Of a stretch of 64,000 nucleotides of DNA, positions 14,382 to 28,079 are shown in pieces. Position numbers and translations under genes: made by a program. Origin of the DNA: Hippopus hippopus (taxonomy: Eukaryota > Mollusca > Bivalvia > Cardiida > Cardiidae); assembly GCA_946811185.2 (NCBI GenBank), contig OX328107.1, forward strand, positions 15,341,565 to 15,405,564, given 5' to 3'. The notes below the pieces were generated by a model. That model did no database searches and was not told where the DNA came from. It worked only from the letters and a program-made list of their open reading frames with translations. The stretch's first letter is position 1. Every line of letters begins with the position of its first letter.

Positions 14382-14396
14382 CATGTCAGTAGTAAA

Positions 14397-14451
14397 GGAC
14401 GAGAGAATAGGGTACTACCCAGGGCCCGGGTAGTACCCTATTCTCTCGTCC
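14397..14451. repeat. terminal palindrome, left end
   Basis: 55 bp with two perfect 24-bp arms (14397-14420 and 14428-14451) around a 7-nt centre AGGGCCC. It lies only 9 bp inside the transposon terminus. Confidence 0.95.
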
Positions 14452-14729
14452 CTGAGTGCCCTACATCACCATCCCTGACAAAAATGGGGCCCTATTTGCT
14501 GTCCCCGAAAGATTTTTTTTTATTTTGTCCCTAGGCTCTCTTCCCTGAGAGGGATTTAGCATTCAAAATGGCGGCCGTTTGGACAGCAACCGCGGACAAA
14601 AATTGACCAGGCTCTCTACCCTGAGCGGAATTTTTTGCAAAAAAGGGAAAAGGGGGGGGAGTTTTGCCTATTCTCTCTACCCTGAGAGGGATTTATCATT
14701 CAAAATGCCGGCCTTGTATGTATGATTTT

Positions 14730-15190
14730 CTCTCTTTCTAATTGCCTGACCATTGAGTTGGACTTAGTTTTTTCACCCTATGGATGATTTTTTCTCTTTC
14801 TAATTGCCTGATCAGTGAGATGGACTTAGCTTTTTTCACCCTATGAATGATTTTCTCTCTTTCTAAAAAACCTAACCATTGAGTTGGACTTAGATTTTTG
14901 TGCACTATAAATGATTTCTAAATGTCTGAGCACTGAGTTGTACTTAGTTTTTTCTTCACCTATGTATGATTTTTTCTCTTTCTAATTGCCTGACCATTGA
15001 GTTGGACTTAGACTTTTTTCTGCATCTCTATGAATGATTTCTCTTTTCTAAAAGGAAATTTATCTTATATCACTGAGTTGGTCTTAGCTTTTTTCCCCTA
15101 TGAATGATTTTCTCTCTTTCTAAAAGGTTGACCATTGAGTTGGACTTAGTCTTTTTTCTACACCTATGTATGATTCTTACTCTTTGCAGT
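14730..15190. repeat. tandem repeat block in left TIR (about 60-70-bp units)
   Basis: Imperfect repeats of CCATTGAGTTGGACTTAG and ATGATTTTCTCTCTTTCTAA, about seven units. The matching block in the right TIR is about 27420-27760. Confidence 0.85.
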
Positions 15191-15265
15191 ATAACTCTCT
15201 GGAGTATAACTCTTTTGGAGTGCATCTCTTCTAAAAGAAAGATAGAACTTTCGTGGTAGATGGTT

Positions 15266-15403
15266 AGTCCTGAAAAGGACTGTTGGGTTAGCTCTGAAAA
15301 GAGCTGTGACAATTTGAAGAAATGACAATTTGAAGAAAGATAGAACTTTCGTGGTAGATGGTTAGTCCTGAAAAGGACTGTTGGGTTAGCTCTGAAAAGA
15401 GCT
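15266..15403 (-). promoter_or_regulatory. histone-like stem-loops, left TIR
   Basis: Read on the minus strand, the transcript strand of the left TIR gene, there are two AGCTCT-TTTC-AGAGCT hairpins (15388-15403 and 15290-15305) and two AGTCCT-TTTC-AGGACT hairpins (15364-15379 and 15266-15281). They are spaced AACCCAAC apart and followed by AACCATCTACCACGAAAG. Six-bp stem, UUUC loop and an ACCCA-type 3' flank match the histone mRNA 3' stem-loop pattern. A decayed hairpin lies at about 15530-15545. Function is inferred. Confidence 0.6.
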
Positions 15404-15627
15404 GTGACAATTTGAAAAGAGCTGTGACAATTTGAAGAAATGACAACTTGAAGATAGAACTTTCGTCTGACAGCTTGAAGGTAGAACTTTCGTCTGACAT
15501 CTTGAAGATAGAACTTTCGTGGTAGATGGGTAGCCGTGAAATGGACTGTTTGTTTTTGGAGGCTATGTTTTTTTCCCACTTCTAATGACAACATCCGAAA
15601 TTCACTTGGTAAATGACTAAGATGATG

Positions 15628-15813
15628 TCAGACGTTGTCTTTAAAAATAGTTGAAGTAATCTTTCCACCGAGATCTTTGTATGGTTGTGTTATACATCGC
15701 AGTTGGTTTTGTTCCTCCACTCCTACGAGATGAGTGGTTAGTTGCAATAACTGCTGTCCGGCATTTAGATACTCTTGGAGAGCCTCACGTAGTTGATGAT
15801 TTACCTCTTCCAT
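15628..15813 (-). CDS. TIR-encoded small protein, left copy (internally shortened)
   Basis: A 61-residue protein starting at ATG 15813 (MEEVNHQLREALQEYLNAGQ...). It is closely similar to the 101-residue product of the right TIR through the conserved TQPYKDLGG/E region, after which this copy lacks about 70 bp and ends TSTIFKDNV. A more upstream in-frame start would be a GTG and is unlikely in an animal. Predicted mostly helical, soluble, function unknown. A TATAAAAG box at 15904-15911 lies upstream on the minus strand and histone-like stem-loops lie downstream. The missing part holds the Cys-rich tail, so this copy may be non-functional. Confidence 0.7.
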   Translation of the reverse strand: MEEVNHQLREALQEYLNAGQQLLQLTTHLVGVEEQNQLRCITQPYKDLGGKITSTIFKDNV

Positions 15814-15903
15814 ATTGATATTGCTTCCGAATATTAACACTGCTTTCGAAGTGATCGTCAGCTGAGAATCAAGAAATGGTGAATGTATGAAAATAACGCA
15901 GGG

Positions 15904-15911
15904 CTTTTATA
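15904..15911 (-). promoter_or_regulatory. TATA box of left TIR gene
   Basis: TATAAAAG on the minus strand about 90 nt upstream of ATG 15813. The element is conserved at the same place in the right TIR (26312-26319). Confidence 0.6.
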
Positions 15912-16089
15912 CGTTTAAGGAGGATTGAAATTTTTTAAAGAGCTCGGCCAGGGTAGAAAACACATACATTTTTCCATGCTACGTTTCATGCTAATATAGC
16001 AAAAAAGTTATGAGACGCTGTATGGGAAAAATGTAGACAGAACAAGTCTTGGGAAAAACAGAATGAAGAAGTCTATTGTTTTTTGAACT

Positions 16090-16099
16090 TTTATTTATT
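16090..16099 (-). terminator. overlapping poly(A) signals after the protease gene
   Basis: The minus strand reads AATAAATAAA here, two overlapping AATAAA hexamers about 120 nt past the protease stop. This is the likely 3' end of the protease-distal transcript. The segment TTATTGAACAGAACTGAACA just beyond it recurs at 24565. Confidence 0.55.
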
Positions 16100-16214
16100 G
16101 AACAGAACTGAACAATGAACATATTTACAATGAACATATTTTACAATGACCTGTAAAAAAAGACAAAAATGAAATATTTACAATGAATTGATAGCAAAAA
16201 AAGAAGATCATTTT

Positions 16215-16715
16215 TCACTGTTTGTAGGTTTGAGTCTCTGAAATTTTCTTGTATAGAATTCCGTAGTGTTGATTAAACCACAATGATACATCTCGATCGT
16301 TTCGATGGTGTTTCGTTGAGAGGAATTTCTGTTGAAGATATTTCTGTATATTGTATCCTCTAGCAGCAGCATCCAATACAAAGATACAGTAAAGTCCGCA
16401 AACTTTACCCTGTAGACTCTGAAGAGTTTGTCGATTGTATCTCCACGTTGAAGAATGATTGTCTAAAAAGTTAATGATTTCTGGTTCAAGTGGTGGTAGT
16501 CCATACGAATCAAAGTATAGCACATTGTCATTATTGTTGAATATCACTGCCACCCAGTGTTCTCCTGGTTTATTTGATCTCTCTGTATTCACAATGTAAG
16601 CTTTCACATGATTTGGTTTCTGTCGAGGCAACTGATCTTTTGCACAGACTTTCGCCTGTAGATTTTTTATCCAGGTTCCGTGATCTAATATGTATTGAAT
16701 TTCATAAGTATACAT
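16215..16715 (-). CDS. PRO: adenovirus-type cysteine protease (adenain-like, Ulp1 fold)
   Basis: A 166-residue protease expected to mature capsid proteins. Catalytic elements are in family order: His in GEHWVAV (about residue 53), Asp in YFDSYG (about 69), Gln in SLQGKVCG (about 102) and Cys in GKVCGLYC (about 106). The spacing and the FDSYGLPP context match the protease of adenoviruses and Polintons. I start at ATG 16715; the codon before it is a GTG. The gene is last in the minus-strand block, after the CxxC protein and the major capsid gene, and is followed by AATAAA. The frame is intact with all catalytic residues. Confidence 0.92.
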   Translation of the reverse strand: MYTYEIQYILDHGTWIKNLQAKVCAKDQLPRQKPNHVKAYIVNTERSNKPGEHWVAVIFNNNDNVLYFDSYGLPPLEPEIINFLDNHSSTWRYNRQTLQSLQGKVCGLYCIFVLDAAARGYNIQKYLQQKFLSTKHHRNDRDVSLWFNQHYGILYKKISETQTYKQ

Positions 16716-16726
16716 CACGTTTTTTC

Positions 16727-17191
16727 TTAGTCACTTTCTTCCCAGGATTGTTTTACTTTGTTACACCAGTTATGTAACCAAGACGAATCCACAAATTCAG
16801 ATAAAATGTTTTGTTTTATATCCTTCCACAATCTGTAGGTTTCCACATAGTCACTGTCCTCGAGTTTCATTTCCATTAATTCAGGATACCATTTTTCCAT
16901 GATTTTGTATGGATTTAATTCCATCATAGCTTTTTCTATAAGCATATCCGTATGTTCTTGTCTGTTCTTAAATAAACACAGGTCGTGCTGTATTTGACTG
17001 GGGTGGTCCACTTGACATCCGTAACACTGGTTGCGAACTTCACTGGCAATAAGATTTTGTAATTCTTCAATCATATGTTTTTCGAAGCTATTGTGAATGT
17101 CATTTTTCCGAGTAGAAATGCACTTTGAAGTAGAATATTTCACTTTTTCTGCTTCTTCTCTCAGTGATATAGCAAATCTGAGTCCAAGCAT
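16727..17191 (-). CDS. Polinton CxxC...HxxC protein, function unknown
   Basis: A 154-residue protein starting at ATG 17191, ending 11 bp before the protease start. The centre has the metal-binding-like pattern NQCYGCQVDHPSQIQHDLC (two Cys two apart, His, then His and Cys), which I recognise from uncharacterised Maverick proteins. The N-terminal half is helical and charged. The C-terminal part is acidic and Trp-rich (SSWLHNWCNKVKQSW). It has no signal peptide or membrane segment. It sits between major capsid and protease, so a virion or assembly role is inferred by position only. The reading frame is intact. Confidence 0.82.
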   Translation of the reverse strand: MLGLRFAISLREEAEKVKYSTSKCISTRKNDIHNSFEKHMIEELQNLIASEVRNQCYGCQVDHPSQIQHDLCLFKNRQEHTDMLIEKAMMELNPYKIMEKWYPELMEMKLEDSDYVETYRLWKDIKQNILSEFVDSSWLHNWCNKVKQSWEESD

Positions 17192-17213
17192 CGTTTTTCT
17201 ATATATGCTCTTT

Positions 17214-17229
17214 AGTCCTGAAAAGGACT
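17214..17229 (-). promoter_or_regulatory. histone-like stem-loop 3' of the major capsid gene
   Basis: On the minus strand AGTCCT-TTTC-AGGACT, 29 nt after the capsid stop codon and before the next gene. The same hairpin is repeated in both TIRs. No AATAAA lies between the capsid stop and the next ATG. It closely resembles the histone 3' stem-loop in stem length, loop sequence and distance from the stop. Confidence 0.6.
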
Positions 17230-17257
17230 GTTTTTTCTGATGTGATTTTTTCCGAAG

Positions 17258-18565
17258 TTAGTAATCTGTGATGATTTCTCTCAAACTGTTGATCTCGATC
17301 TGATTGTCAAATTCAGCAAAAACAATAACGTTGACCACTGCTGCCAAGGCTTGGGCGAATTGAAGCTCAATTCGAAGACTTCCAGTTTTTATAGGGTGAA
17401 GTTGACCTTCTTCACTGCCTTGATCGGCTGTCAAATCGTAACCCCACAAACAGTATCCACCAGCATAATCTTCTTTGGCAATATCAAATGATTTATTGAG
17501 TCCGAAGGCTGAGACAGCCTGATACATTGACAAATATGATTTCAAATACAAACCATTTTCAAAGTCAGGCTCAAAGGGTCTGTTATGAATACTGTGACCA
17601 TTACATGATACATCTATTTTTGACAGATTGAAATGTTGGAAGAAAAATGGATTGGTATCATAACCTCCATTATAACTAGCATTTGTTACCATTGCAATGA
17701 AAATACGTTTCGGAAGCTGTCCTTGAAACAAATGATCTTCAACTTTAGACTGAAGTCCCATGCCAATGGTAAAAGTCTTTACTTCTACTCTGCGGATAGG
17801 AATTTTCATGTTTTGCTGAGAAATAATTTGATTTAGATCATTCGCAACAACAGGCAACAATTCAACATTTCGCATATGCAGACTGACTGTTTCCAGTACA
17901 ATTTTTGTAGCTGGTGCACCAGTACCTCCCGTAAGACAAAAGTTTGATGAAGCTCTGTTTAATCTAAGTCTGATTTCAATACCGTTAGGTAAATATTTTT
18001 CTTGCTGAAATAGATCAAGATGCAATCGTCCGAAAAGCTCTGCAGTTCTGCTTAGTGCGATTACAGCGATTCTTCCTCGTAATCCTTCATTATTCCCATC
18101 ATGGTTGAGTGCTTCGAATTGTCCACTGGTGTCTTCGGTCCAAAGTACACCACCTTTTAAAAACGTAGTCTTGCAGTCGGCATTATATGACAGAAGATTT
18201 TCGATATATGCTCTGTATGGATAGGTGTCTGAATTACTATTGATTAGTTTATTATTTAGATACAAATCGATACTGCTAAACATACTGTGCATGAAATTGT
18301 TTACAGGGGCTACATTTGAGCCGGCATCTAAGTTGCTGCCATCTGCTTTAACGATTTTGAATTTGATATACAAATACGATTGTGATAAATCTGTCCAATG
18401 TTCGGTTTGAGGTGGTATGAAGAATTCTATCGGTGAATTGTTTGTCAAAGATGATATTGGAAAATGTTCAACCCATTGGCTTTCTTGCATCGTTGTCAAT
18501 GTGGGTGGTACAGAAAGAACATCGAGTTCTGATTTACTGCATTCGCAAGATCCACTTTGCATCAT
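17258..18565 (-). CDS. MCP: major capsid protein (double jelly-roll, hexon-type)
   Basis: A 435-residue protein of the length and pattern of Polinton/adintovirus major capsid proteins, long annotated in animals as F54H12.2-like. Landmarks are an N-terminal Cys-rich lead, an early segment WVEHFPISSLTNNSPIEFFI, YLYIKFKI with SSIDLYLNN..., then the conserved PYRAYIENLLSY, the LNRASSNFCL region, and a C-terminal hydrophobic strand (NVIVFAEFDNQIEIN). These predict two stacked eight-strand jelly rolls forming the pseudo-hexagonal capsomer. It starts at the first of two ATGs (18565), immediately after a run of A residues. The frame is fully open. The next gene upstream is the basic pX-like protein and the next downstream the CxxC protein. 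A histone-like stem-loop follows the stop. Confidence 0.94.
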   Translation of the reverse strand: MMQSGSCECSKSELDVLSVPPTLTTMQESQWVEHFPISSLTNNSPIEFFIPPQTEHWTDLSQSYLYIKFKIVKADGSNLDAGSNVAPVNNFMHSMFSSIDLYLNNKLINSNSDTYPYRAYIENLLSYNADCKTTFLKGGVLWTEDTSGQFEALNHDGNNEGLRGRIAVIALSRTAELFGRLHLDLFQQEKYLPNGIEIRLRLNRASSNFCLTGGTGAPATKIVLETVSLHMRNVELLPVVANDLNQIISQQNMKIPIRRVEVKTFTIGMGLQSKVEDHLFQGQLPKRIFIAMVTNASYNGGYDTNPFFFQHFNLSKIDVSCNGHSIHNRPFEPDFENGLYLKSYLSMYQAVSAFGLNKSFDIAKEDYAGGYCLWGYDLTADQGSEEGQLHPIKTGSLRIELQFAQALAAVVNVIVFAEFDNQIEINSLREIITDY

Positions 18566-18586
18566 TTTTAAAAAAGATTTTTTCTC

Positions 18587-18967
18587 TCAATCAAATATAT
18601 CAAGAGGTCTCGGTCTAGTGTAATGATTTCTTTGTCTTTTATTAATAATCTTACCCCTGTGAGATCGAGAAGATAAATGACTTGTCTTTTGTGATTTTCG
18701 TTTATTTATCCCAGGTATTAACTGTTGCGCTAAATTATTAACATGTTGTTTTCCCCGCGAGACTGCAACTTTTTTAGGGTTTTTACCACGTAAAAGGATA
18801 TCTTCTGCTGCACGTATTCCTTGTTTGATTCCTTCTTTTTTTATAGCATTAAAACCAGATTTGACCAAGGGTTTAAGCAATGGTTTCACTGTTTTAAGCG
18901 CTGATCTAAATAGGGAGCCTAATCCATACCCATACTGATGTTTTATGCCACGATAAACTGGTAGCAT
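18587..18967 (-). CDS. basic minor virion protein (pX/pVI-like)
   Basis: A 126-residue very basic protein from ATG 18967. The N-terminus has a glycine-rich YGYGLGSLF segment followed by an amphipathic helix (RSALKTVKPLLKPLVKSGFN) and repeated AIKKEGIKQGIRAAED. The C-terminal half is rich in Lys, Arg, Ser and His (NKRKSQKTSHLSS...). This arrangement resembles the membrane-active and core peptides of adenoviruses (pVI, pX) and their Polinton counterparts. That assignment is by composition and gene order between penton and major capsid, not by a residue-level match. The reading frame is intact and the start is preceded by an A-tract. Confidence 0.75.
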   Translation of the reverse strand: MLPVYRGIKHQYGYGLGSLFRSALKTVKPLLKPLVKSGFNAIKKEGIKQGIRAAEDILLRGKNPKKVAVSRGKQHVNNLAQQLIPGINKRKSQKTSHLSSRSHRGKIINKRQRNHYTRPRPLDIFD

Positions 18968-19008
18968 TTTTTTGTCAATGTATCAGTTTAATTATTTCAA
19001 AATATCAA

Positions 19009-19911
19009 TTATTTCTTATTTTTCTGTCTGAAATGTAACTTGACGATTGTCTTACCAGTAATGAAATGAAACGATATGCCAGAATCCCCTGTTATTTGAA
19101 TGTGAATAGTATCAAAATCAGATTTCGAAACGGGGATATAATGCGGTAATGTAATATCATGGTTGATATGTTGGGTTTCATAATTATTTTCAACTGATTC
19201 GGTTGGTTTGAACGGTAAAACACGAAGTATGGGAGCAAATGTATCACCCACTATAGTGTGTTCGGCAATATCTGAATAAACAAACAGATGGTTGTAGCCA
19301 GCATCGATGTTAGGACTGTATTTAAATGCATTTAAAAATCTTCTACCCGGATAAATCGCCTCGTTTTGAAATTCTGGCGATCCTCCCAGTTTTAAAAACA
19401 GCGATGAGTGGAATTTGATTCCGGTTTTTGTAATATTTCTGATTGCAAGTTTCGGACGTTTGGATGAGGTTGAATAGCTAATAGACAGTAGCATTGAATT
19501 CTTTTGAAGGATACCCGATAGGTTATTTTGAACCAAATCATCGATCACCTCTATAATATGCTTTGGTGAAGTGTAACTACCCGGTGGAAAGGTAAATAGA
19601 ATTGACCATTTTTCTGCTCTAGCTTTATCGTCTCGCCTTAATACAGATATCTCCATATTATCTCTTTTTTTATCTACCGCTGCTACTGCATTGTATAAAG
19701 CGTTATCTGCAGTTATAATTTCGAACTTTGCTTCTTGTTCACTTACGTTTAAAAACTGAGAGGGGGTAATAAGTTGAACTAATGCAACTTCCCAATTTTC
19801 CCTATCAATATGAACTGTCTTTGGTAAATGAACTTTAAAACAGCACTGTGTGTTGTTCGGATAAAGGTTTATGGAACTATCGCTAGGTAGAGTAACATAA
19901 AATGAATTCAT
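19009..19911 (-). CDS. mCP: minor capsid protein (penton, single jelly-roll)
   Basis: A 300-residue protein starting at ATG 19911 behind the tract ATTAAAAA. The N-terminus MNSFYVTLPSDSSINLYPNN followed by a Cys-Cys and then VHLPKTVHI...WEVALVQL is the typical opening of Polinton penton proteins (a V-T-L-P-S strand, N-N-T, then a WEVAL strand). A beta-rich body follows, with FPPGSYTSPKHIIEVID, and a charged C-terminus. It is expected to form the pentameric vertices of the capsid with the major capsid protein. The gene lies 41 bp upstream of the pX-like gene in the same direction and has no frame breaks. Confidence 0.9.
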   Translation of the reverse strand: MNSFYVTLPSDSSINLYPNNTQCCFKVHLPKTVHIDRENWEVALVQLITPSQFLNVSEQEAKFEIITADNALYNAVAAVDKKRDNMEISVLRRDDKARAEKWSILFTFPPGSYTSPKHIIEVIDDLVQNNLSGILQKNSMLLSISYSTSSKRPKLAIRNITKTGIKFHSSLFLKLGGSPEFQNEAIYPGRRFLNAFKYSPNIDAGYNHLFVYSDIAEHTIVGDTFAPILRVLPFKPTESVENNYETQHINHDITLPHYIPVSKSDFDTIHIQITGDSGISFHFITGKTIVKLHFRQKNKK

Positions 19912-19922
19912 TTTTTAATATT

Positions 19923-20228
19923 TTATTTTTTACTGTTAATGAAATCAAATCCCGGTTGTTTTTGTTCTGTCTTTGTGAATTTTAACCCCGGAGATGGGAG
20001 AATATATCCGAGTGAACTACTTAACAGTATCAACCACAATTCACGATCCTGACTTTGAATACTTAAATGTACTATGGAGGTTGCAATAATTGCGTAAATG
20101 ACTATTATCTGTGAAATATATGTAAACTGATTCTTTGGAACACGATTTCCACAGCAGCTGTAATTTTTAGTACCAACACTATCGACACTTTCTGTCGCGC
20201 ACTCAATGTTTGACTGTGAATTCATCAT
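19923..20228 (-). CDS. small two-pass membrane protein of Polintons
   Basis: A 101-residue protein from ATG 20228 (two adjacent ATGs). A polar Cys-containing N-terminus (NYSCCGNRVPK) is followed by two hydrophobic segments at about 37-57 (YISQIIVIYAIIATSIVHLS) and 63-79 (ELWLILLSSSLGYILPSP), then a polar tail. The YISQII...LWxxLLSSSLGYxLPxP pattern is one I recognise as conserved among animal Mavericks, with no known function. It ends 11 bp before the penton start. A TATAAAAA lies about 15 nt upstream, at the end of a tandem AT repeat. Confidence 0.8.
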   Translation of the reverse strand: MMNSQSNIECATESVDSVGTKNYSCCGNRVPKNQFTYISQIIVIYAIIATSIVHLSIQSQDRELWLILLSSSLGYILPSPGLKFTKTEQKQPGFDFINSKK

Positions 20229-20288
20229 AAATGTACTGTCTTTTTATAAGATTTTTTTATTATAAGATTTTTTATCTATAAGATTTTT
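20229..20288 (-). repeat. AT-rich tandem repeat between integrase and membrane-protein genes
   Basis: About four copies of a 15-17-bp unit containing AATCTTATAGATA on the minus strand, ending in CTTATAAAAAG just before the membrane-protein gene. It may be a promoter or spacer. Confidence 0.7.
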
Positions 20289-21425
20289 TTATCTATAAGA
20301 TTTTTTCCCCTTCAAAGACACCAAATGCGATTCTGGTATCCAACTTTGAAATTTTTTTGGATAACCTTTCCAATTGACTTTTATTTCTTTGATTAATTTT
20401 TTACCCTCACGCCTTGTACGTCTATCAAGAACTGAATCAATTTCATAGACTTCGTCATCTTTTATTAATTGAAGTTCGTATTCATAATAACTTCCCAAAA
20501 TTTGTTCACCCTGTAAATCTTTTATTTTATAGGTGATAGGTGAAAATGTCTTGTTAACATGAGTGATTTCAAATATTTCTTGCGTCCAATTTGGTAAATA
20601 TCCCTTATCAAATGTGCGTTTTGTTTTATTGATCCGAACACGATCTCCAATTTCGAATTTTGGCTTTTTCGTCATAGCGATTGTCGATAATCGAGGATAC
20701 AGATTTTTCGAAACCTCTGCCTCATTTGATTTTGTTACCATTGCAGGAGATGTTTTAATACTTCTGTGAAAAGTATGATTGTAATTCTGAACTAAAGAAT
20801 TCAATACGTCAATGTAACGTCTTGTTTTCTTGTACGTAAAGTATTTCCACATTCTCGATTTTAAAGTTCTTTGAAATCTTTCAACGAGGCTTGCTTTTGT
20901 CTCTGGATTTTCGGTGGTGAAAAAATGAATCTGACTCTTTTTCAAGTATTGTTGAAACAGTTTGTTTTTAAATTCCGAACCTTTATCTGTTTGAAGTGCC
21001 AAAGGTTTTCGTTTTGATTTCTGAACAATAGATTGAAATGCTCGAATCAAAGTTTTTCCCATTTTATTTGGAATAGGGACAACCCATGAAAATCTTGAAA
21101 ACACGTCGATTACACAAAGTAAATATTTCTTGTTATCATTTTGTTTTGCTAAATGTTGCATATTGGCCAAATCAGCTTGCCATTGATAATCTATACCACT
21201 TACAATAGTTTTTCGTCTTTTGAAACGTCGACGGATTGGTTTGTGTAAGGTATAGGTGGATTCACCTCGTAACCACTCTTGAACATCTTTGTATCTTATT
21301 CCTTTCAAAACAGATTTTGCAGCGTGATACAATTGGTTTATTCCAGTAAATGCGACAGTACTTTTGGGATCATAAAATAACTTTCTTAACACGTAATCAA
21401 CTTTAGGCTTTACCAGGGCTCCCAT
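20289..21425 (-). CDS. INT: retroviral-type integrase with chromodomain
   Basis: A 378-residue Polinton integrase that catalyses insertion and makes the 6-bp duplication seen at the ends. The N-terminal helical region is followed by the RNase-H-like core with the DDE triad Asp85 (QADLANM), Asp147 (QTDKGSEF) and Glu182 (LVERFQRTLKS), giving the DD35E-type spacing. A small basic SH3-like region (DRVRINKTKR, about 261-300) comes next. The C-terminus is a chromodomain (about 326-370: YEIDSVLDRR, VNWKGYP, SWIPESHL), which may bias targeting to modified chromatin. It starts at ATG 21425, overlapping the end of the upstream gene by 16 bp. The frame is intact with all catalytic residues. Confidence 0.95.
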   Translation of the reverse strand: MGALVKPKVDYVLRKLFYDPKSTVAFTGINQLYHAAKSVLKGIRYKDVQEWLRGESTYTLHKPIRRRFKRRKTIVSGIDYQWQADLANMQHLAKQNDNKKYLLCVIDVFSRFSWVVPIPNKMGKTLIRAFQSIVQKSKRKPLALQTDKGSEFKNKLFQQYLKKSQIHFFTTENPETKASLVERFQRTLKSRMWKYFTYKKTRRYIDVLNSLVQNYNHTFHRSIKTSPAMVTKSNEAEVSKNLYPRLSTIAMTKKPKFEIGDRVRINKTKRTFDKGYLPNWTQEIFEITHVNKTFSPITYKIKDLQGEQILGSYYEYELQLIKDDEVYEIDSVLDRRTRREGKKLIKEIKVNWKGYPKKFQSWIPESHLVSLKGKKSYR

Positions 21426-22294
21426 GACTGAGACGTTTTACGACTAGGGGTCTTTTTTATAGATTCTGGTGGAGTTAACAACTCTTTAGTATAGAATTGC
21501 TTCAGTCTTTCTCTTTCTTCAGGTTTCATGTATGGAGTTTTCATGTATGGAGTTTTCATCGTAGATTTTTTAACACTTTTTGCAGGCGATTTCCTTGCAG
21601 TTTTTTGTACACTTTTTGGTGTGTGAAATAAGTAATCAGACTCACCATGGGATTCTTCATCTGCACTCAGCGGCTTATCATAAGCTTTATCATAAGTTTT
21701 ATGCATCCACCTCCATCTGCTTGGATTGCCAATGACTTCTTGCGGAATATTACTTTCATGTAATGCCTTTGAAAAAGTTTTCCAGCCTTTGGGTTCAACA
21801 CCTTTTCTTTGACGTATTGCATCATTGATAAGATCGATGATATTGGAACCATGAATGCGTCCGCCTTTATATGACACAACTCCTTGTTCATCCCAAGTTA
21901 AATTATTGTTATCTTTTATCATATTTAAAAGTAACTCGGCTTTTCTTTTCATGGTTTTTGGTACACTTTGCAAAATTTGATCATGCAAGGTAACAGATGT
22001 TGATTTCTGTACACTATCATCACTTTTTGTCGTTGAAAGTAAATTGTTCAAAGTCGGTCTTGCTTTTTGAAGAGAATTTTGTAACTTAAACAAAGTCTCA
22101 CCATACTTTTGAGCTTTTTCCGATTCTGATAAAATGGTGTTTTGTAAAATATGTCCCATGTCCTGTTGAAGATGTACTTCATCTACAACTTGTGGATTGG
22201 GTGGTAAACGAGGTCTTTGAGCTTGTTCGGCTTTCCAACGATTCATATTTTCTAAGGTTTGGTAAGGCACAATAACCATTTTTTTAACAGACAT
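21410..22294 (-). CDS. conserved Polinton structural-type protein, function unknown
   Basis: A 294-residue protein from ATG 22294. The start MSVKKMVIVPYQTLENMNRW is followed by RPRLPPNPQV, a helical segment, then a folded-looking domain at about 105-200 (LQSVPKTMKRKAELLLNMIK, GGRIHGSNIIDLINDAIRQR, PQEVIGNPSRWRW). The C-terminus is disordered and basic, with a direct repeat MKTPYMKTPYMK. I recognise the central domain as recurring in animal Mavericks next to the integrase; no function is established to my knowledge. It overlaps the integrase start by 16 bp, so the two are translated from alternative or separate transcripts. Confidence 0.8.
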   Translation of the reverse strand: MSVKKMVIVPYQTLENMNRWKAEQAQRPRLPPNPQVVDEVHLQQDMGHILQNTILSESEKAQKYGETLFKLQNSLQKARPTLNNLLSTTKSDDSVQKSTSVTLHDQILQSVPKTMKRKAELLLNMIKDNNNLTWDEQGVVSYKGGRIHGSNIIDLINDAIRQRKGVEPKGWKTFSKALHESNIPQEVIGNPSRWRWMHKTYDKAYDKPLSADEESHGESDYLFHTPKSVQKTARKSPAKSVKKSTMKTPYMKTPYMKPEERERLKQFYTKELLTPPESIKKTPSRKTSQSWEPW

Positions 22295-22312
22295 AATTTA
22301 AAAATTATAAAA

Positions 22313-22732
22313 TTACAAGGCTTTAAGAGCTCCTCCTATTCCTCCGATAACGGCTTTTCCTAACAATGGTAATAATGCAGGACCAAGCAATTGAAGAAAT
22401 CCACCTTTTTGATTTAATATTTGTTTTTTATTTTTTACTGAGACTGATTTCGAAGCTAAACGTCTGAGATGCTGCCTACTTGAATACAATTTCTTCTTCT
22501 GAGGTGGTGATAAATGTACATTGCCTTTTAAAACATTATGACAGCATTCCGATATGCATTTTATCACTTCAGGTGATGAATCTTTTACAAGTTTTTTACG
22601 TGCTTTTGGTTTAGCCTGTATCATAGCCATAACCATTGAACCATGTTTTTTTATCAGAGGTGTTTTCTTCTTCATGTTGACTTGATCTCGATTTCGGATT
22701 AAATGATAATACAAGTTCCACATCACTAACAT
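22313..22732 (-). CDS. small basic Polinton protein with C-terminal GG-hydrophobic tail
   Basis: A 139-residue protein if begun at ATG 22732, or 120 from the in-frame ATG 22675 (MKKKTPLIKKHG), which may be the true start. The middle is basic with Cys and His (CISECCHNVLKGNVHLSPPQ). The ending KKQILNQKGGFLQLLGPALL then leads to a glycine-rich hydrophobic helix (GKAVIGGIGGALKAL). A double glycine before a hydrophobic tail is a feature of Polinton minor virion proteins and could be a protease-cleaved membrane-active peptide; this is inference. It lies 18 bp upstream of the next gene. Confidence 0.72.
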   Translation of the reverse strand: MLVMWNLYYHLIRNRDQVNMKKKTPLIKKHGSMVMAMIQAKPKARKKLVKDSSPEVIKCISECCHNVLKGNVHLSPPQKKKLYSSRQHLRRLASKSVSVKNKKQILNQKGGFLQLLGPALLPLLGKAVIGGIGGALKAL

Positions 22733-22782
22733 TTATAGCTAATATAATGTTTTTTGTAGACAAAATTTGTTGTTAAAATTTC

Positions 22783-23724
22783 TTAAGAAAACTGTGAATA
22801 GAGATCGTCGGCTAATGTAGTGGCTGTAGATAAAGATGAATCCACGGGAACAGATCTTCCTTTCCCAAGGTGGAGCACCTCATTTTTGTCGTCAAAATTA
22901 TATCTCCCCGTATCAACGTTGTGTTTCACCATATCATAAAGCATTCGTTTATATTTTTTTAACCCTTTTTTATGTTTAGCTAATGTCTTTGGAGACCACG
23001 TGCTGGAGGGGATTTCTTGAAACGATAATTTTTTACCTGGTAATATGAATCTTGAATACTTTCTTTCGTAATCCTGCAGTTTTTTTCTCATTCTTTCCTC
23101 TTCGGATTTCGGATACTGTTGATGTTCTGAAATGTTGCTTCCTACAGAACTTCGTTTTCGGGTAGTAACAAATCTTTCATCAATCGTAATTGGGGCATGC
23201 TTCTTTGGTGGTGAATTCTTCTTCTTTGGAGATTTTTTCTTTGGTGGAGCACGCTTTCTTGGAGTAAGCTTTTTTGGAGATTTCTTCTTTGTTGGAGATT
23301 TTTTCTTTTTCGGAGACTTCTTCTTTTGCGGAGCACGCTTTCGTGGAACACGTTTTCGATTTTGTCTTTCAGCTCCAAATTTTCTGATGGTTTTTGTTCC
23401 ATCCCATCTCAGCAAACTTCTGATAATCACACCACCTAGAAATCCACCCCCTCCAGGTTTTAAAATGATTTTACGTTTACTTTCCTCATCTATGGACGGA
23501 TCTGCTAGCTGTTCAATATCTGCTCTATGTTTTGTCATGTACGTTATGGTTTGTTTTGGTAATTTGATTTTATTTTCGATGATGTTTTGCGCAGCTAATG
23601 TAAACCATTTTAAAATTTCTTTTAATCCTGCTTTTAACACAGCTTCTCTTTCATGTTTATCGGTTTGTTGACTTAAATTTCGCAAAGCAACTAAAACCGA
23701 TCTTGGTGTAGGTGGTAAGTCCAT
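22783..23724 (-). CDS. KKSP-repeat basic protein, likely DNA-binding core protein
   Basis: A 313-residue protein starting at ATG 23724. The N-terminal third is helical (LRNLSQQTDKHEREAVLKAG) and includes an ILKPGGGGFLGGVII segment like that of the neighbouring gene. Residues about 120-180 are a run of KKKSPKK, KRAP and PPKK repeats resembling the tails of histone H1 and other DNA-condensing proteins. The C-terminal third looks folded and conserved (FILPGKKLSFQEIPSSTWSP, then KKYKRMLYDMVKH). Expected to package DNA in the virion or in the nucleus. The frame is intact. The long antisense frame over the repeats is a composition artefact. Confidence 0.75.
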   Translation of the reverse strand: MDLPPTPRSVLVALRNLSQQTDKHEREAVLKAGLKEILKWFTLAAQNIIENKIKLPKQTITYMTKHRADIEQLADPSIDEESKRKIILKPGGGGFLGGVIIRSLLRWDGTKTIRKFGAERQNRKRVPRKRAPQKKKSPKKKKSPTKKKSPKKLTPRKRAPPKKKSPKKKNSPPKKHAPITIDERFVTTRKRSSVGSNISEHQQYPKSEEERMRKKLQDYERKYSRFILPGKKLSFQEIPSSTWSPKTLAKHKKGLKKYKRMLYDMVKHNVDTGRYNFDDKNEVLHLGKGRSVPVDSSLSTATTLADDLYSQFS

Positions 23725-23828
23725 GTTTACTCACGGATGGGTATCATAAAAATGATTTATATTTAAAAATGTAATTCTCTTTTAAAGCAAGAACTTTTGC
23801 ATAAAAAACTTTTCTTAAAGAAACTTTT

Positions 23829-24500
23829 TTAAGCAGAAGAATAAATAACAGGTCCTCTTTCATTACCTTGTGTATACCAACGGTAAAATATATCTGTTCG
23901 GAGTCTTAATTCTTTGTTTGTTTGTGAATGAAAATCTACGACTAGATATCCATGGTCCGACAATGTAGCATCTTCATAAGCAGGTACCAAATGTGGGGCT
24001 TGCATTTGTCGAGCTAATGTTTTAATCTGATTCTTATCTCGTTCATTTCGAAATAAAATCATGTATCTAGAATTAAGGCTAATGGTTCGACTCGATTTCG
24101 ATTGTTGAAACATATTTTGCGTGATGTAAATCACACTTGCATTACGATGATGACCTTTTCTTGTAAACCAAAGTTTAATTTTTTCCTCATCTTTTTCCCC
24201 CAACATGTCATCAAAGACGATTAAATGTGGTATGGATACATCACTGACAATTTCGTTTTCGTCGTCAGGAATCCCCTCCACGAATTTTATCAATTCAAAT
24301 TGTGAATTAAACTTTTCCTGCATAACACTGTAGGCATGTTGCCATTCTTTGTAACACCAAACAACTCTTTCAGGAACGATGTTGAACAAGTCTTCTCGAT
24401 ACTCAATTAATTTATGAACGAACTCTGTTTTTCCACAACCGCTCGGCCCTGTGATGAAAATATTACAAGGATGTTGAAATAATATGGATTGTACATCCAT
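23829..24500 (-). CDS. ATP: packaging ATPase (A32/FtsK-HerA type)
   Basis: A 223-residue ATPase starting at ATG 24500 after the tract GTAAAAA. Walker A is GPSGCGKT (18-25), Walker B is LIVFDD (93-98), and the downstream IYITQN motif (about 124-129) supplies the sensor Gln/Asn found in A32-like and Polinton ATPases. It pumps the genome into preformed capsids, fitting the complete capsid and protease set in the same block. The length is typical. The frame is intact with all motifs present. It is separated from the upstream polymerase remnant by 260 bp of AT-rich sequence with a poly(A) signal. Confidence 0.94.
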   Translation of the reverse strand: MDVQSILFQHPCNIFITGPSGCGKTEFVHKLIEYREDLFNIVPERVVWCYKEWQHAYSVMQEKFNSQFELIKFVEGIPDDENEIVSDVSIPHLIVFDDMLGEKDEEKIKLWFTRKGHHRNASVIYITQNMFQQSKSSRTISLNSRYMILFRNERDKNQIKTLARQMQAPHLVPAYEDATLSDHGYLVVDFHSQTNKELRLRTDIFYRWYTQGNERGPVIYSSA

Positions 24501-24734
24501 TTTTTACTTTACTCTTTAAAGGCTAATGATAAAAAGATAACATCATTGAAAATGAAAGCATTTTTATTGAACAGAACTAAACAATGAAACATTTTTTGCA
24601 ATGCAACATAAAAAATTTCCTTGACAATGAAAAAAATCATAAGGAAACATTTTTTTACAATACAGCGTAAAATACATTTTCTTGACAATGAAAAAATTCA
24701 CACTGAAATATTTTTTTTACAATGCAAATTCGCA
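24501..24734 (-). terminator. AT-rich spacer with poly(A) signal
   Basis: Minus-strand AATAAA at 24563-24568. Repeated ACAATG and GAAAAAAT motifs fill the rest. The segment TTATTGAACAGAACTAAACA at 24565 matches one after the protease gene (16096), so the two 3' regions share an origin. Confidence 0.55.
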
Positions 24735-25339
24735 AAATACCACGAGTTTCACATTTGTCTTCATATTCCGTAATGTCTTTGTGCAATTGCTCTTTCTGAG
24801 TCTGACTGATACCGATCTGGATAACCACTGCCTTCTTGCTTAATTTTCAAGAAATTGGTCACATAACGTTTAAAGAACTGATCTGACATAGAATTGAAAT
24901 GCCAAATTTCATACACTTGCAATAATCGATAACCGCAGTCAAGAGCCTTGAATAATTCAAAAGTGACCCAAGTTCCGACCAAAGCCCTCTTTTCTTCACC
25001 ATGGCTACAAATACTTGAACTTTCTTCTGCACATTTCATACAGAGTGGAAACATCATTTTGTTGTTACAGTGAACTGGGAGAACGGGGTGAAACAAATCA
25101 GTTGGAGGCAAAACTTTGCATTTGATTAAGCCCTCATATTGTCGAATATTGTTCATGTCAATATTCTCAGCAGACAAAATTTCTGGCTGACCTACAGGAT
25201 AGGATTTGTGTTTACAAACATAAGGGTCCAGAGAACAGATATCAATGTACTTGATTTCCTTCTTGCTTTTTTCATCAACATCAGGAACGCGATAATAGGC
25301 CACGGGAGCTTCGCATTTTTCCTGCGATCTCTTGGCAGT
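24735..25339 (-). pseudogene. PolB: remnant of protein-primed family B DNA polymerase
   Basis: The open frame (25339 to the stop at 24761) has no in-frame ATG. It carries only the central palm part of a Polinton pPolB: the EIKYIDICSLDPYVCK region (motif A, where the usual SLYP Tyr is Asp), GLIKCKVLPP, HPVLPVHCNNKMMFPLC, then GTWVTFELFKALDCGYRLL and FLKIKQEGSG. The N-terminal exonuclease and the later motifs B (KxxxN) and C (YxDTD) are absent. After the stop, similarity seems to continue briefly in another frame, so there is also a frameshift before the break. It cannot be an active polymerase. It could be transcribed but has no start. Confidence 0.85.
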
Positions 25340-25428
25340 CTAGGAACTTAAACAACACCGTGCCAACTCAGTGGAAACGCCGTTTAGTGTGACAAGGGGT
25401 TAAATCACAATATGTTAGCGTCTATTGC

Positions 25429-25497
25429 TATAAATAGACCATTGGGTAGAGGTACACTACGTCAGCGTCTAGTAGTGAAGCGTATTTTTTATAAATA
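25429..25497 (+). promoter_or_regulatory. two TATA boxes upstream of the zinc-knuckle ORF
   Basis: TATAAATA occurs at 25429-25436 and 25490-25497 within a loosely duplicated segment (GCGTCTA...CTATAAATAG and GCGTCTAG...TATAAATAG). The second is about 65 bp before ATG 25563. This is a probable divergent early promoter, opposite in direction to the capsid block. Confidence 0.5.
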
Positions 25498-25562
25498 GCT
25501 CTATACGCTGTACTATCAGCTACAGAGTTTTAGATCAAGCGACGCTCGACAAACGATATCGG

Positions 25563-25691
25563 ATGAATGGTGAGAGAACAAATATTTGTTTTACGTGCAA
25601 CGAAGCAGGACATTGGTCCAGAAATTGTCCAAAAAAGAAAATCAGACAGGAACATTTGTTTTTTTGTCTACGTGAACCCACACAGTCATGA
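25563..25691 (+). CDS. CCHC zinc-knuckle mini-protein
   Basis: A 42-residue ORF starting at ATG 25563. It contains a perfect retroviral-type zinc knuckle C-x2-C-x4-H-x4-C (CFTCNEAGHWSRNC, residues 9-22) followed by a lysine-rich PKKKIR, which would bind single-stranded nucleic acid. The frame stops soon after a T7 run. A second frame with its own ATG at 25567 stays open to 25926 (119 residues) and could be the continuation of this gene after a one-base slip, or a separate product. Known Polinton gene sets do not usually list this gene, so it may be lineage-specific. It is on the opposite strand to the capsid block, in the early-gene position. Confidence 0.6.
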   Translation: MNGERTNICFTCNEAGHWSRNCPKKKIRQEHLFFCLREPTQS

Positions 25692-25926
25692 CATCGAAAT
25701 TTCACCATCGTTTTACAACGTTGTCGATCTCCAACATACGAAATTCGTCGGGACACTACATTCATTCTACAACGAAAATACATGGAAAACAAGTTCACTA
25801 CAGACTACAATATCACCGGTTGAAAATCAGACCGTAGACATGCAGTCCGACACAACGGATATCACCGATTCAAAAAATCTGCAAAATAACAGAACAGGCA
25901 GAGAAAAAAATATCTACAAGCGATAA
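25567..25926 (+). CDS. possible early protein overlapping the zinc-knuckle ORF
   Basis: A 119-residue frame from ATG 25567, four bases after the zinc-knuckle ATG. The part past position 25670 (SPSFYNVVDL, then LHSFYNENTWKTS and an acidic Ser/Thr-rich tail) looks like ordinary protein; the part before it is just the shifted knuckle. Either a separate small protein or the C-terminal half of a frame-broken knuckle protein. No domain recognised. Confidence 0.35.
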   Translation: MVREQIFVLRATKQDIGPEIVQKRKSDRNICFFVYVNPHSHDIEISPSFYNVVDLQHTKFVGTLHSFYNENTWKTSSLQTTISPVENQTVDMQSDTTDITDSKNLQNNRTGREKNIYKR

Positions 25927-26275
25927 TCTAAGAAAACAACAAACTTTGGATCTAAAAGAGGAGAAAAAAGCAAAACAACGAAAAGAAGAAAAAACGAGTA
26001 ACAAAGAACTGTTTCTTTTGCAAATCAACAAAACATTTCCCATACTCTATCAGACATCTGCTTGCGCAGTGGGGGTAGACAAGAATTCGAACCATACTGG
26101 AACAAATATGATTTTATGTAAAAATATCGCTGGGTTTTATAGCTTTACAGGAGGATTGAACTGATTGACTCATGACGTCATTTTTCCTATGTTTTTCCCG
26201 CATCGCCGTTTCATGCTGTTTTTTACCACTCCTAACTCAGTGTCACACAGTACAATCCTGGTGTTTCCCGTCAGG
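25927..26275. other. Polinton spacer, no gene supported
   Basis: Lysine/glutamate-rich open stretch without a convincing ATG, then unique sequence up to the inner TIR boundary. Position 26100-26165 resembles the TIR promoter in part (GGTTTTATAGC...ACAGGAGGATTGAA), perhaps an old partial duplication. Confidence 0.4.
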
Positions 26276-26311
26276 TCCGCGCTCTTTAAAAATTTCAATC
26301 CTCCTTAAACG

Positions 26312-26319
26312 TATAAAAA
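26312..26319 (+). promoter_or_regulatory. TATA box of right TIR gene
   Basis: TATAAAAA about 110 nt before ATG 26428, in the same context (AAACG before, CC after) as the left TIR box. Confidence 0.6.
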
Positions 26320-26427
26320 CCCAGGGTTATTTCCATACATTCATCATTTTTGACTCTCAGCTAACGAACACTTCGAAAGCGGTATCAATATTCGGAAGCA
26401 GTATCAATATTCGGAAGCAGTATCAAT

Positions 26428-26733
26428 ATGGAGGAGATAAATTATCAACTACGTGAGGCTCTCCAAGACTATTTGAATGCAGGTCAACAGTTATTACAAC
26501 TAAACACTCATTTCGTAGGAGAGGAGGAACAAAACCAACTACAACGTATAACACAGCCATACAAAGATCTCGGTGAAAGATTAGTTCAACTATTTTTAAA
26601 GGCAACACCGGATGTCATTTTGGTTGATATCGAATTTTGGAGGAAGATTACTTTCGATAATGGAGCAATGCTAATCAGAAAAAGAGTTGAAGCATGCCCC
26701 ATTTGTCAAGCGAATTTCGGATGCTGTCATTAG
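26428..26733 (+). CDS. TIR-encoded small protein, right (full-length) copy
   Basis: A 101-residue protein from ATG 26428. The N-terminal half is helical and Gln/Leu-rich (MEEINYQLREALQDYLNAGQ). The middle has a TQPYKDLGER stretch and hydrophobic strands (VILVDIEFW), and the C-terminus ends ACPICQANFGCCH, a possible metal-binding cluster. The upstream leader contains a GGAAGCAGTATCAATATTC unit present three times here but fewer times at the left end. It is duplicated in the other TIR in shortened form. Reads outward toward the terminus, with an array of histone-like stem-loops starting 52 nt after the stop. Function unknown; position suggests an early regulatory or replication-associated gene. 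Confidence 0.75.
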   Translation: MEEINYQLREALQDYLNAGQQLLQLNTHFVGEEEQNQLQRITQPYKDLGERLVQLFLKATPDVILVDIEFWRKITFDNGAMLIRKRVEACPICQANFGCCH

Positions 26734-26784
26734 AAGTGGAAAAAACAACGTGAGACGAAAAAAACACAGCCTCCAAAACAAAAC

Positions 26785-27312
26785 AGCCCTTTTAAGGGCT
26801 AACCCAACAGTTCTTTTCAGAGCTAACCCAACAGTCCTTTTCAGGGCTAACCATTTACCACGAAAGTTCTATCTTCAAGATGCCAGACGAAAGTTCTACC
26901 TTCAAGCTGTCAGACGAAAGTTCTATCTTCAAGTTGTCATTTCTTCAAATTGTCACAGCTCTTTTCAAATTGTCACAGCTCTTTTCAGAGCTAACCCAAC
27001 AGTCCTTTTCAGGACTAACCATCTACCACGAAAGATCTATCTTCAAGATGTCAGACGAAAGTTCTACCTTCAAGCTGTCAGACGAAAGTTCTATCTTCAA
27101 GTTGTCATTTCTTCAAATTGTCACAGCTCTTTTCAGAGCTAACCCAACAGTCCTTTTCAGGACTAACCATCTACCACGAAAGATCTATCTTCAAGATGTC
27201 AGACGAAAGTTCTACCTTCAAGCTGCCAGACGAAAGTTCTATCTTCAAGTTGTCATTTCTTCAAATTGTCACAGCTCTTTTCAGAGCTAACCCAACAGTC
27301 CTTTTCAGGACT
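26785..27312 (+). promoter_or_regulatory. array of nine histone-like stem-loops, right TIR
   Basis: On the plus strand, 3' of the right TIR gene, hairpins with a 6-bp stem and TTTC or TTTA loop lie at 26785-26800, 26809-26824, 26833-26848, 26977-26992, 27001-27016, 27125-27140, 27149-27164, 27273-27288 and 27297-27312. They come as pairs, AGCTCT/AGAGCT followed by AACCCAAC then AGTCCT/AGGACT, and CCACGAAAG follows each pair. G.U wobbles replace Watson-Crick pairs in some stems, so pairing is kept while sequence drifts. They resemble histone mRNA 3' stem-loops. Confidence 0.62.
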
Positions 27313-27340
27313 AACCATCTACCACGAAAGTTCTATCTTT
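26845..27340. repeat. 148-bp tandem repeat array, right TIR
   Basis: Units begin ACCATCTACCACGAAAG at about 27018, 27166 and 27314, exactly 148 bp apart. The first unit is longer (from about 26845) through an internal duplication. Each unit contains AAGTTCTACCTTCAAGCTGT and the paired stem-loops. Long open frames over it are repeat artefacts. Confidence 0.9.
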
Positions 27341-28009
27341 CTTTTAGAAGAGATACACTCCAAAAGAGTTATACTCCAGAGAGTTATACTGCAAAGAGTA
27401 AGAATCATTCATAGATGCAGAAAAAGACTAAGTCCAACTCAATGGTCAGGCAATTAGAAAGAGAGAAAATCATACATAGGGCAAAAAAAACTAAGTACAA
27501 CTCAGTGCTCAGACATTTAGAAAGAGAACAAATCATTCATAGGGTGAAAAAAAACTAAGTCCAACTCAATGGTCAGGCTTTTAGAAAGAGAGAAAATCAT
27601 ACATAGGTGAAGAAAAAACTAAGTCCAACTCAGTGATATAGGATAAATTTCCTTTTAGAAAAGAGAAATCATTCATAGAGATGCAGAAAAAAGTCTAAGT
27701 CCAACTCAATGGTCAGGCAATTAGAAAGAGAGAAAATCATACATACAAGGCCGGCATTTTGAATGCTAAATCCCTCTCAGGGTAGAGAGAATAGGCAAAA
27801 CTCCCCCCCTTTTCCCTTTTTTGCAAAAAATTCCGCTCAGGGTAGAGAGCCTGGTCAATTTTTGTCCGCGGTTGCTGTCCAAACGGCCGCCATTTTGAAT
27901 GCTAAATCCCTCTCAGGGAAGAGAGCCTAGGGACAAAATAAAAAAAAATCTTTCGGGGACAGCAAATAGGGCCCCATTTTTGTCAGGGATGGTGATGTAG
28001 GGCACTCAG

Positions 28010-28064
28010 GGACGAGAGAATAGGGTACTACCCGGGCCCTGGGTAGTACCCTATTCTCTCGTCC
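28010..28064. repeat. terminal palindrome, right end
   Basis: Mirror of the left palindrome: 24-bp arms 28010-28033 and 28041-28064 around GGGCCCT, 9 bp inside the right terminus. Confidence 0.95.
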
Positions 28065-28079
28065 TTTACTACTCATGTC

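What the first reader, a model, noticed from the sequence alone, without database searches (positions are those of the whole stretch)
26785..27312. Histone-type 3' stem-loop arrays in a Polinton, 3' of both TIR genes
Seen: nine hairpins in the right TIR and four clear ones in the left, each a 6-bp stem with a UUUC (once UUUA) loop, with AACCCA or AACCA after each. They follow the TIR genes on the sense strand, starting 52 nt after the right-copy stop. Stems drift but keep pairing (AGUUCU/AGAGCU, AGUCCU/AGGGCU with G.U), which suggests selection on structure. Known: replication-dependent histone mRNAs end at a 6-bp stem with a UYUN-type loop and ACCCA flank, bound by SLBP, with a purine-rich element (CAAGAAAGA in sea urchin) read by U7 snRNP. 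Each pair here is followed by CCACGAAAG. Inference: the element recruits histone 3'-end processing so that its mRNAs are made or translated in S phase, when DNA copying enzymes are available. I know of no report of this in Polintons.
Basis: partly seen in the sequence, partly recalled or inferred. Interest (0 to 1): 0.9.

Follow-up and report, generated by a model that had tools for sequence, protein, structure and literature searches.

The report
Transposon genes dressed as histone genes
A virus-like mobile element (a Polinton) carries, after its terminal gene and after its capsid gene, hairpins almost identical to those that end its host's histone messages, and histone-type promoter boxes in front of the terminal gene, so it likely borrows the host's histone machinery to make its own proteins while cells copy their DNA.

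Summary
Nine hairpins lie 3' of the right TIR gene and four 3' of the degenerate left copy. The window's genome is held, so the host's own histone genes could be read. Host H1 has GGTCCTTTTCAGGACC, the element AGTCCTTTTCAGGACT; host H3/H4/H2A have GGCCCTTTTAAGGGCC, the element's first hairpin AGCCCTTTTAAGGGCT. Only the bottom pair differs (A-U for G-C). The downstream element of host H2B (GAAAGTTCT) recurs in the TIR array one nt further out. The right TIR promoter shares 15 nt with host H1 (best of 163 control windows: 12), then TCAATCC and TATA as in H2B. Of 72 MCP 3' ends inspected (not a random sample), 63 keep a fully paired stem and 9 have 5 of 6 pairs. The TIR gene is thus built like a replication-dependent histone gene around a non-histone ORF. 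Host SLBP likely reads both mRNAs; U7 cleavage is likely at the TIR gene and unsupported at MCP. No RNA data were available; five distant relatives lack the hairpin.

The parts
14388..28073 (.). Polinton element between CATGTC target-site duplications (14382-14387 and 28074-28079)
   Evidence: TIR tips 271 nt, 100%; duplications; rve+chromo integrase, adenovirus-type protease, A32-like ATPase, PolB piece
26261..26318 (+). Promoter of the right TIR gene: H1/H2B-type box (26261-26286, 21 of 26 identical to host H1), TCAATCCTCCT (26295-26305), TATAAAA (26312-26318)
26428..26733 (+). Right TIR gene, 101 aa, no known family, no relative found
26785..26848 (+). First right cluster: three hairpins (26785, 26809, 26833), CGAAAG at 26861-26866
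26977..27312 (+). Three further right clusters, two hairpins each (26977/27001, 27125/27149, 27273/27297), CGAAAG at 27029, 27177, 27325; unit 148 bp
15628..15813 (-). Left TIR gene copy, degenerate (61-aa frame)
15532..15547 (-). First left hairpin, broken by mutation
15266..15403 (-). Left clusters: hairpins 15403, 15379, 15305, 15281, each pair followed by CCACGAAAG
17258..18565 (-). Major capsid protein gene, 435 aa, double jelly-roll
   Evidence: best: Sputnik 3j26, E 1.8e-16; mean pLDDT 71.8
17214..17229 (-). Histone-type hairpin 28 nt 3' of the MCP stop, outside the TIRs

Best explanation
The Polinton's TIR gene and major capsid gene carry 3' hairpins of the host's replication-dependent histone type, by which their mRNAs are predicted to be bound by host SLBP and, at the TIR gene, likely to be cut by U7 snRNP so that they would end at the hairpin without a poly(A) tail. 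The TIR gene also has histone-type promoter boxes (H1/H2B-like box, CAATCC box, TATA) around a non-histone ORF. Shown by sequence: hairpins, their match to host histone hairpins, an H2B-like downstream element in TIR clusters, promoter boxes, covariation, persistence in other copies. Inferred: SLBP binding, U7 cleavage, S-phase expression, and the purpose (TIR protein and capsid made while DNA-copying enzymes are available). The repeated clusters would serve as backup processing sites. At MCP only the hairpin is supported.
For: 14 hairpins against a shuffle mean of 0.01. Same hairpins as host histones except the bottom pair. 46 nt after the stem, cluster 27001 against host H2B: 0 of 1000 shuffles as good; cluster 26833: 6 of 1000 against H2B and against H2A. 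TGTCA box at 30 nt in 2 of 4 right clusters, ATTGTCA at 29-32 nt in host H3, H4, H2A, H1. Right TIR promoter: 15-nt identity with H1, 11-nt with H2B, best of 163 control windows 12; in left-TIR pieces of six other copies TCAATCC and TATAAAA in 6 of 6, GGTCCG in 5 of 6. MCP hairpin fully paired in 63 of 72 copies inspected. Nine distinct hairpins: 54 of 54 pairs standard, covariation score above all 500 shuffles and all slid versions. Host SLBP found at one locus. No AATAAA or ATTAAA within 220 nt after the MCP stop.
Against: Bottom pair A-U in 14 of 14, G-C in the host. Rfam scores below gathering. MCP flank matches no host downstream region well (best 62 of 1000), nor does the last right cluster (175 of 1000); 20 uncorrected comparisons. 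Window left promoter reaches 11 nt, inside the control range. In the first triple the lowest-energy fold pairs hairpin 1 with hairpin 3 instead of forming each alone, and the MCP 3' region folds no better than shuffles (z -1.06). Two of the five covariation measures do not exceed shuffles. One MCP lineage (6 of 72) has a C.A mismatch, 3 more copies have one mismatch. Five distant relatives lack the hairpin. U7 not found. AATAAA lies 1203 nt after the TIR-gene stop. No RNA data.
Confidence: 0.7

Rival explanations
1. SLBP binds the hairpins but U7 does not cut: mRNAs are polyadenylated, and the hairpin acts on translation, stability or localisation, or titrates SLBP.
For: No downstream element supported at MCP; an AATAAA exists far 3' of the TIR gene. 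C. elegans histone genes combine hairpin and poly(A) signal (PMC1924863, passages).
Against: H2B-like downstream element in TIR clusters and histone-type promoter boxes.
Confidence: 0.14
2. Histone-gene fragments were captured by chance and are now subterminal repeats without a role in 3' ends.
For: Array grew by tandem duplication; TIRs are copied as a block; MCP copies are mostly recent.
Against: Same hairpin beside the unrelated MCP gene, on its sense strand, extra hairpins in a second MCP lineage, stems that keep pairing.
Confidence: 0.1
3. The palindromes work as DNA, for example as protein-binding sites for replication or packaging.
For: Terminal position of 13 of 14; stems are palindromic.
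Against: Constant loop orientation relative to genes in 14 of 14, host-histone sequence, downstream element and promoter boxes; one site lies mid-element after a gene.
Confidence: 0.05
4. Chance resemblance.
For: Hairpins are short and most are duplicates of a few.
Confidence: 0.01

Closest known systems
Replication-dependent histone mRNA 3' end (SLBP stem-loop, Rfam RF00032, with U7 downstream element)
   Same: 6-bp stem, UUUC/UUUA loop, G-C second pair, 3' A, purine core 13 nt on in TIR clusters, as in the host's own histone genes
   Different: On non-histone genes of a mobile element; bottom pair A-U; two or three hairpins per downstream element, in repeated clusters; downstream element unsupported at MCP
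Polinton/Maverick (adintovirus-like) element
   Same: TIRs, 6-bp target-site duplication, rve+chromo integrase, adenovirus-type protease, ATPase, double jelly-roll MCP, PolB piece
   Different: Histone-type 3' hairpins and promoter boxes; no held paper has both 'Polinton' and 'histone stem-loop' or 'histone mRNA'
Host H1 and H2B gene promoters
   Same: GGTCCGCGCT box, TCAATCC box, TATA in the same order
   Different: ORF downstream is not a histone; spacing between first box and TATA is shorter than in H2B

Membership tests
Histone 3' UTR stem-loop | 6-bp stem with 4-nt U-rich loop, G-C second pair, 3' A | tested here: met
   14 of 14 in the window; in 9 copies of a second MCP lineage the first hairpin is followed by C
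Histone 3' UTR stem-loop | G-C bottom pair as in the host | tested here: not met
   A-U in 14 of 14; host G-C in H1, H2A, H2B, H3, H4
Histone 3' UTR stem-loop | Rfam RF00032 gathering score | tested here: not met
   8 of 14 listed, at most 24.1 against 34; host 1 of 6 passes. So: works like, not filed as a member
Replication-dependent histone mRNA 3' end | Purine-rich downstream element, TIR clusters | tested here: met
   Clusters 27001 and 26833 resemble host H2B (0 and 6 of 1000 shuffles); the last cluster does not pass (175 of 1000)
Replication-dependent histone mRNA 3' end | Purine-rich downstream element, MCP site | tested here: inconclusive
   Best 62 of 1000
Replication-dependent histone mRNA 3' end | Pairing of the downstream element with host U7 | tested here: inconclusive
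   RF00066 gave no hit and none in controls; pattern search did not complete
Replication-dependent histone mRNA 3' end | SLBP binding; mRNA ends without poly(A) | not testable with these tools
   No RNA or binding data
Replication-dependent histone gene | Encodes a histone | tested here: not met
   TIR ORF has no histone match
Polinton/Maverick | TIRs and 6-bp target-site duplication | tested here: met
Polinton/Maverick | rve integrase, adenovirus-type protease, packaging ATPase, double jelly-roll MCP | tested here: met
Polinton/Maverick | Type B DNA polymerase | tested here: inconclusive
   Only a 180-aa ORF matching positions 223-362 of 468 of PF03175 in this copy

The most novel reading that the evidence does not exclude
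A DNA-virus-like transposon has turned its terminal gene into a histone-gene mimic (promoter boxes, intronless ORF, SLBP hairpins, U7 site) and put the same hairpin on its capsid gene, so that its mRNAs are made, processed and translated together with histone mRNAs in S phase: a new way for a virus or transposon to form mRNA 3' ends and to time capsid production.
Probability: 0.6. Interest if true: 0.93.

Novelty: new variant of a known kind. Interest (0 to 1): 0.85.

Why it matters
In animals the SLBP/U7 pathway is thought to serve histone mRNAs almost alone (general knowledge, not from a call). A Polinton that uses it would be a natural non-histone client, would tie transposon or virion production to S phase, and would explain how intronless viral mRNAs made in the nucleus get their 3' ends. 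It is directly testable: the family is numerous and young in this genome (97 MCP matches scored, each at least 97% identical, from 2115 first-look candidates), so 3'-end reads from the host would settle it.

Tried and rejected
Rfam at gathering scores gave nothing in the window; the cut-off is too strict for this host's own histones. A degenerate hairpin pattern in IMG/VR hit 13 contigs, about what I would guess by chance (rough estimate, no call); only the flanks of the matches were printed, their gene context was not examined. MCP scans of IMG/VR, single sequence and alignment, found no relative. The MCP alignment in prokaryote assemblies found five loci in MAG assemblies, which I take for eukaryotic contaminants (L014-L018, 26-40% identity); none has a hairpin of this type, and in L014 and L017 the next frame opens within about 5 nt of the MCP stop. 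Protein searches with the array ORF and with the TIR gene found nothing. U7 by Rfam: nothing, uninformative. U7 by pattern and a more distant MCP query (P0085) did not complete. No histone-like promoter was seen in the 200 nt before MCP (by eye). MicroRNA-family hits at the TIR tips reflect a terminal palindrome and were set aside.

Full report
Fourteen hairpins fit a histone-type pattern (recalled consensus, first pair left free) against a mean of 0.01 in 300 shuffles; the rest of the window has none; in the gene core the one MCP hairpin is reached by 2 of 500 shuffles.

The element. It spans 14388-28073 between CATGTC duplications, with 271 nt of identical TIR tip. Pfam finds an rve integrase with chromodomain, an adenovirus-type protease, an A32-like ATPase and a piece of PolB. 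The 435-aa protein is predicted to fold as a double jelly-roll capsid protein. PolB is only a piece, so this copy probably cannot move alone (inference).

The host's own histone genes. The genome that holds the window (1.07 Gb, 34 contigs) has a histone cluster on contig C15. I read one repeat (L049) and part of a second (L050). H3, H4 and H2A end in GGCCCTTTTAAGGGCC, H2B in GGCCCTTATCAGGGCC, H1 in GGTCCTTTTCAGGACC. The H3, H2A and H1 hairpins recur in L050; an H4 hairpin was not listed there. In 30 H3 loci the H3 3' end is identical in 30 and the H4 one in 29. H2B was read once. The element's first hairpin is the core-histone hairpin and its commonest one is the H1 hairpin, each with A-U for the bottom G-C. 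Downstream, H2B has GAAAGTTCT 12 nt after the stem; the four right clusters have GAAAGTTCT (two) or GAAAGATCT (two) 13 nt after it, the two intact left pairs GAAAGTTCT. Two of four right clusters have GATGTCA at 30 nt; host H3, H4, H2A and H1 have ATTGTCA at 29-32 nt. Aligning 46 nt after the stem with each of five host genes (20 comparisons, uncorrected): cluster 27001 against H2B 0 of 1000 shuffles, against H2A 20; cluster 26833 against H2B and H2A 6 each; last right cluster 175 at best; MCP 62 at best; matches to H3, H4 and H1 are not significant. So the downstream element is supported in TIR clusters and not at MCP.

The right TIR gene has CAGGTCCGCGCTCTT, 15 nt identical to the host H1 promoter (GGTCCGCGCT is also in H2B), then TCAATCCTCCT as in H2B, then TATAAAA. 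Among 163 control windows the best match is 12 nt; the window's left copy reaches 11 and so does not exceed controls. In left-TIR pieces of six other copies, TCAATCC and TATAAAA are present in six and GGTCCG in five. By eye, three of them match the 26-nt host H1 box at 23 positions, the window's right copy at 21. A pattern drawn from H1 and these copies finds the window's right TIR with 3 mismatches and nothing else; 0 of 100 shuffles match. Because the pattern was drawn partly from copies of the element, one search is the independent test.

Other TIR copies. Of the six pieces, four show hairpin clusters after the gene (2, 4, 3 and 3 hairpins); the other two end 20-32 nt after the gene stop. 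The 101-aa frame is intact in three, is the end of a longer frame in a fourth and is broken in two.

Persistence and covariation. The MCP query scored 97 matches, each at least 97% identical, from 2115 candidates. I inspected 72 MCP 3' ends: the 30 top-scoring, the window's own included, 20 picked from lower rows, 12 and 10 picked from searches with more distant MCPs. This is not a random sample and most copies are recent. 57 belong to the window's lineage: 54 with the same stem, 3 with AGTACT. Nine belong to a lineage whose 3' end has an added segment with further hairpins; each has at least one fully paired stem (G.U allowed). Six belong to a lineage with AGCCCT/AGAGCT, one C.A mismatch. In total 63 of 72 have a fully paired stem and 9 have five of six pairs. 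Among nine distinct hairpins (six element, three host; 14 rows given), 54 of 54 pairs are standard, 7 cells changed on both sides, and the covariation score exceeds 500 of 500 shuffles and the six slid versions; two measures, pairs with a change on both sides (113 of 500) and further pair types (483 of 500), do not exceed shuffles. Single-strand folding forms both hairpins of cluster 26977/27001 (z -2.73) and the MCP hairpin (z -1.06, 28 of 200 shuffles as good); in the first triple the lowest-energy fold pairs hairpin 1 with hairpin 3.

Mechanism. In the SLBP complex the second-pair G is contacted by an arginine, and a 3' flanking A is part of the minimal site (PMC10388802, passages); the element keeps both. 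U7 pairs with a purine core downstream (PMC7026596, passages). Canonical histone mRNAs lack poly(A) and are S-phase linked (PMC5011920, passages); in one bivalve the histone mRNAs have the hairpin (PMC6210712, passage). PF15247 finds SLBP at one host locus, so the element would rely on the host's. I commit to this: the TIR mRNA is likely made from a histone-type promoter and cut after one of the hairpin clusters; the MCP mRNA is likely bound by SLBP, with its 3' cut left open.

Limits. No RNA data, no U7 sequence, no DNA from other bivalves. Five distant relatives (L014-L018) lack the hairpin, so it looks like a trait of this lineage and not of all Polintons. The host is likely a mollusc, by the named relatives (inference). 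The held papers have none with both 'Polinton' and 'histone stem-loop' or 'histone mRNA'; wider searches were seen as listings only; subscription papers and preprints are not held.

Noticed in passing
14398-14450 and 28011-28063: A near-perfect palindrome of about 53 nt sits at each TIR tip and gives spurious microRNA-family hits.
   Followed up: no
24761-25303: PolB is reduced to a 180-aa piece in this copy.
   Followed up: no
L049: 29-32 nt after the hairpins of H3, H4, H2A, H1: A box ATTGTCA lies at nearly constant distance behind four host histone hairpins, AGTGTCA behind H2B; its role is unknown to me.
   Followed up: partly
26848-27260 and left counterpart: Within the array a 27-nt repeat alternates the CGAAAG core with a TGTCA-like box.
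   Followed up: partly
L107, L116, L117, L118, L119, L121, L123, L124, L126: A second MCP lineage has an added 3' segment with further hairpins; in three copies a microsatellite follows the second one.
   Followed up: partly
L014-L018: Polinton-like contigs sit in bacterial MAG assemblies (tubeworm and mussel symbionts and others), likely host contamination.
   Followed up: no
L015:9734-9798: Weak type-P1 twister ribozyme match (28.9 bits, gathering 67.2) beside a Polinton-like capsid gene.
   Followed up: no
G000:C15:40374917-40376221 and C15:41717277-41718581: Two MCP copies lie within about 0.3 Mb of either side of the host histone cluster at about 40.57-41.47 Mb; not tested against chance.
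   Followed up: no
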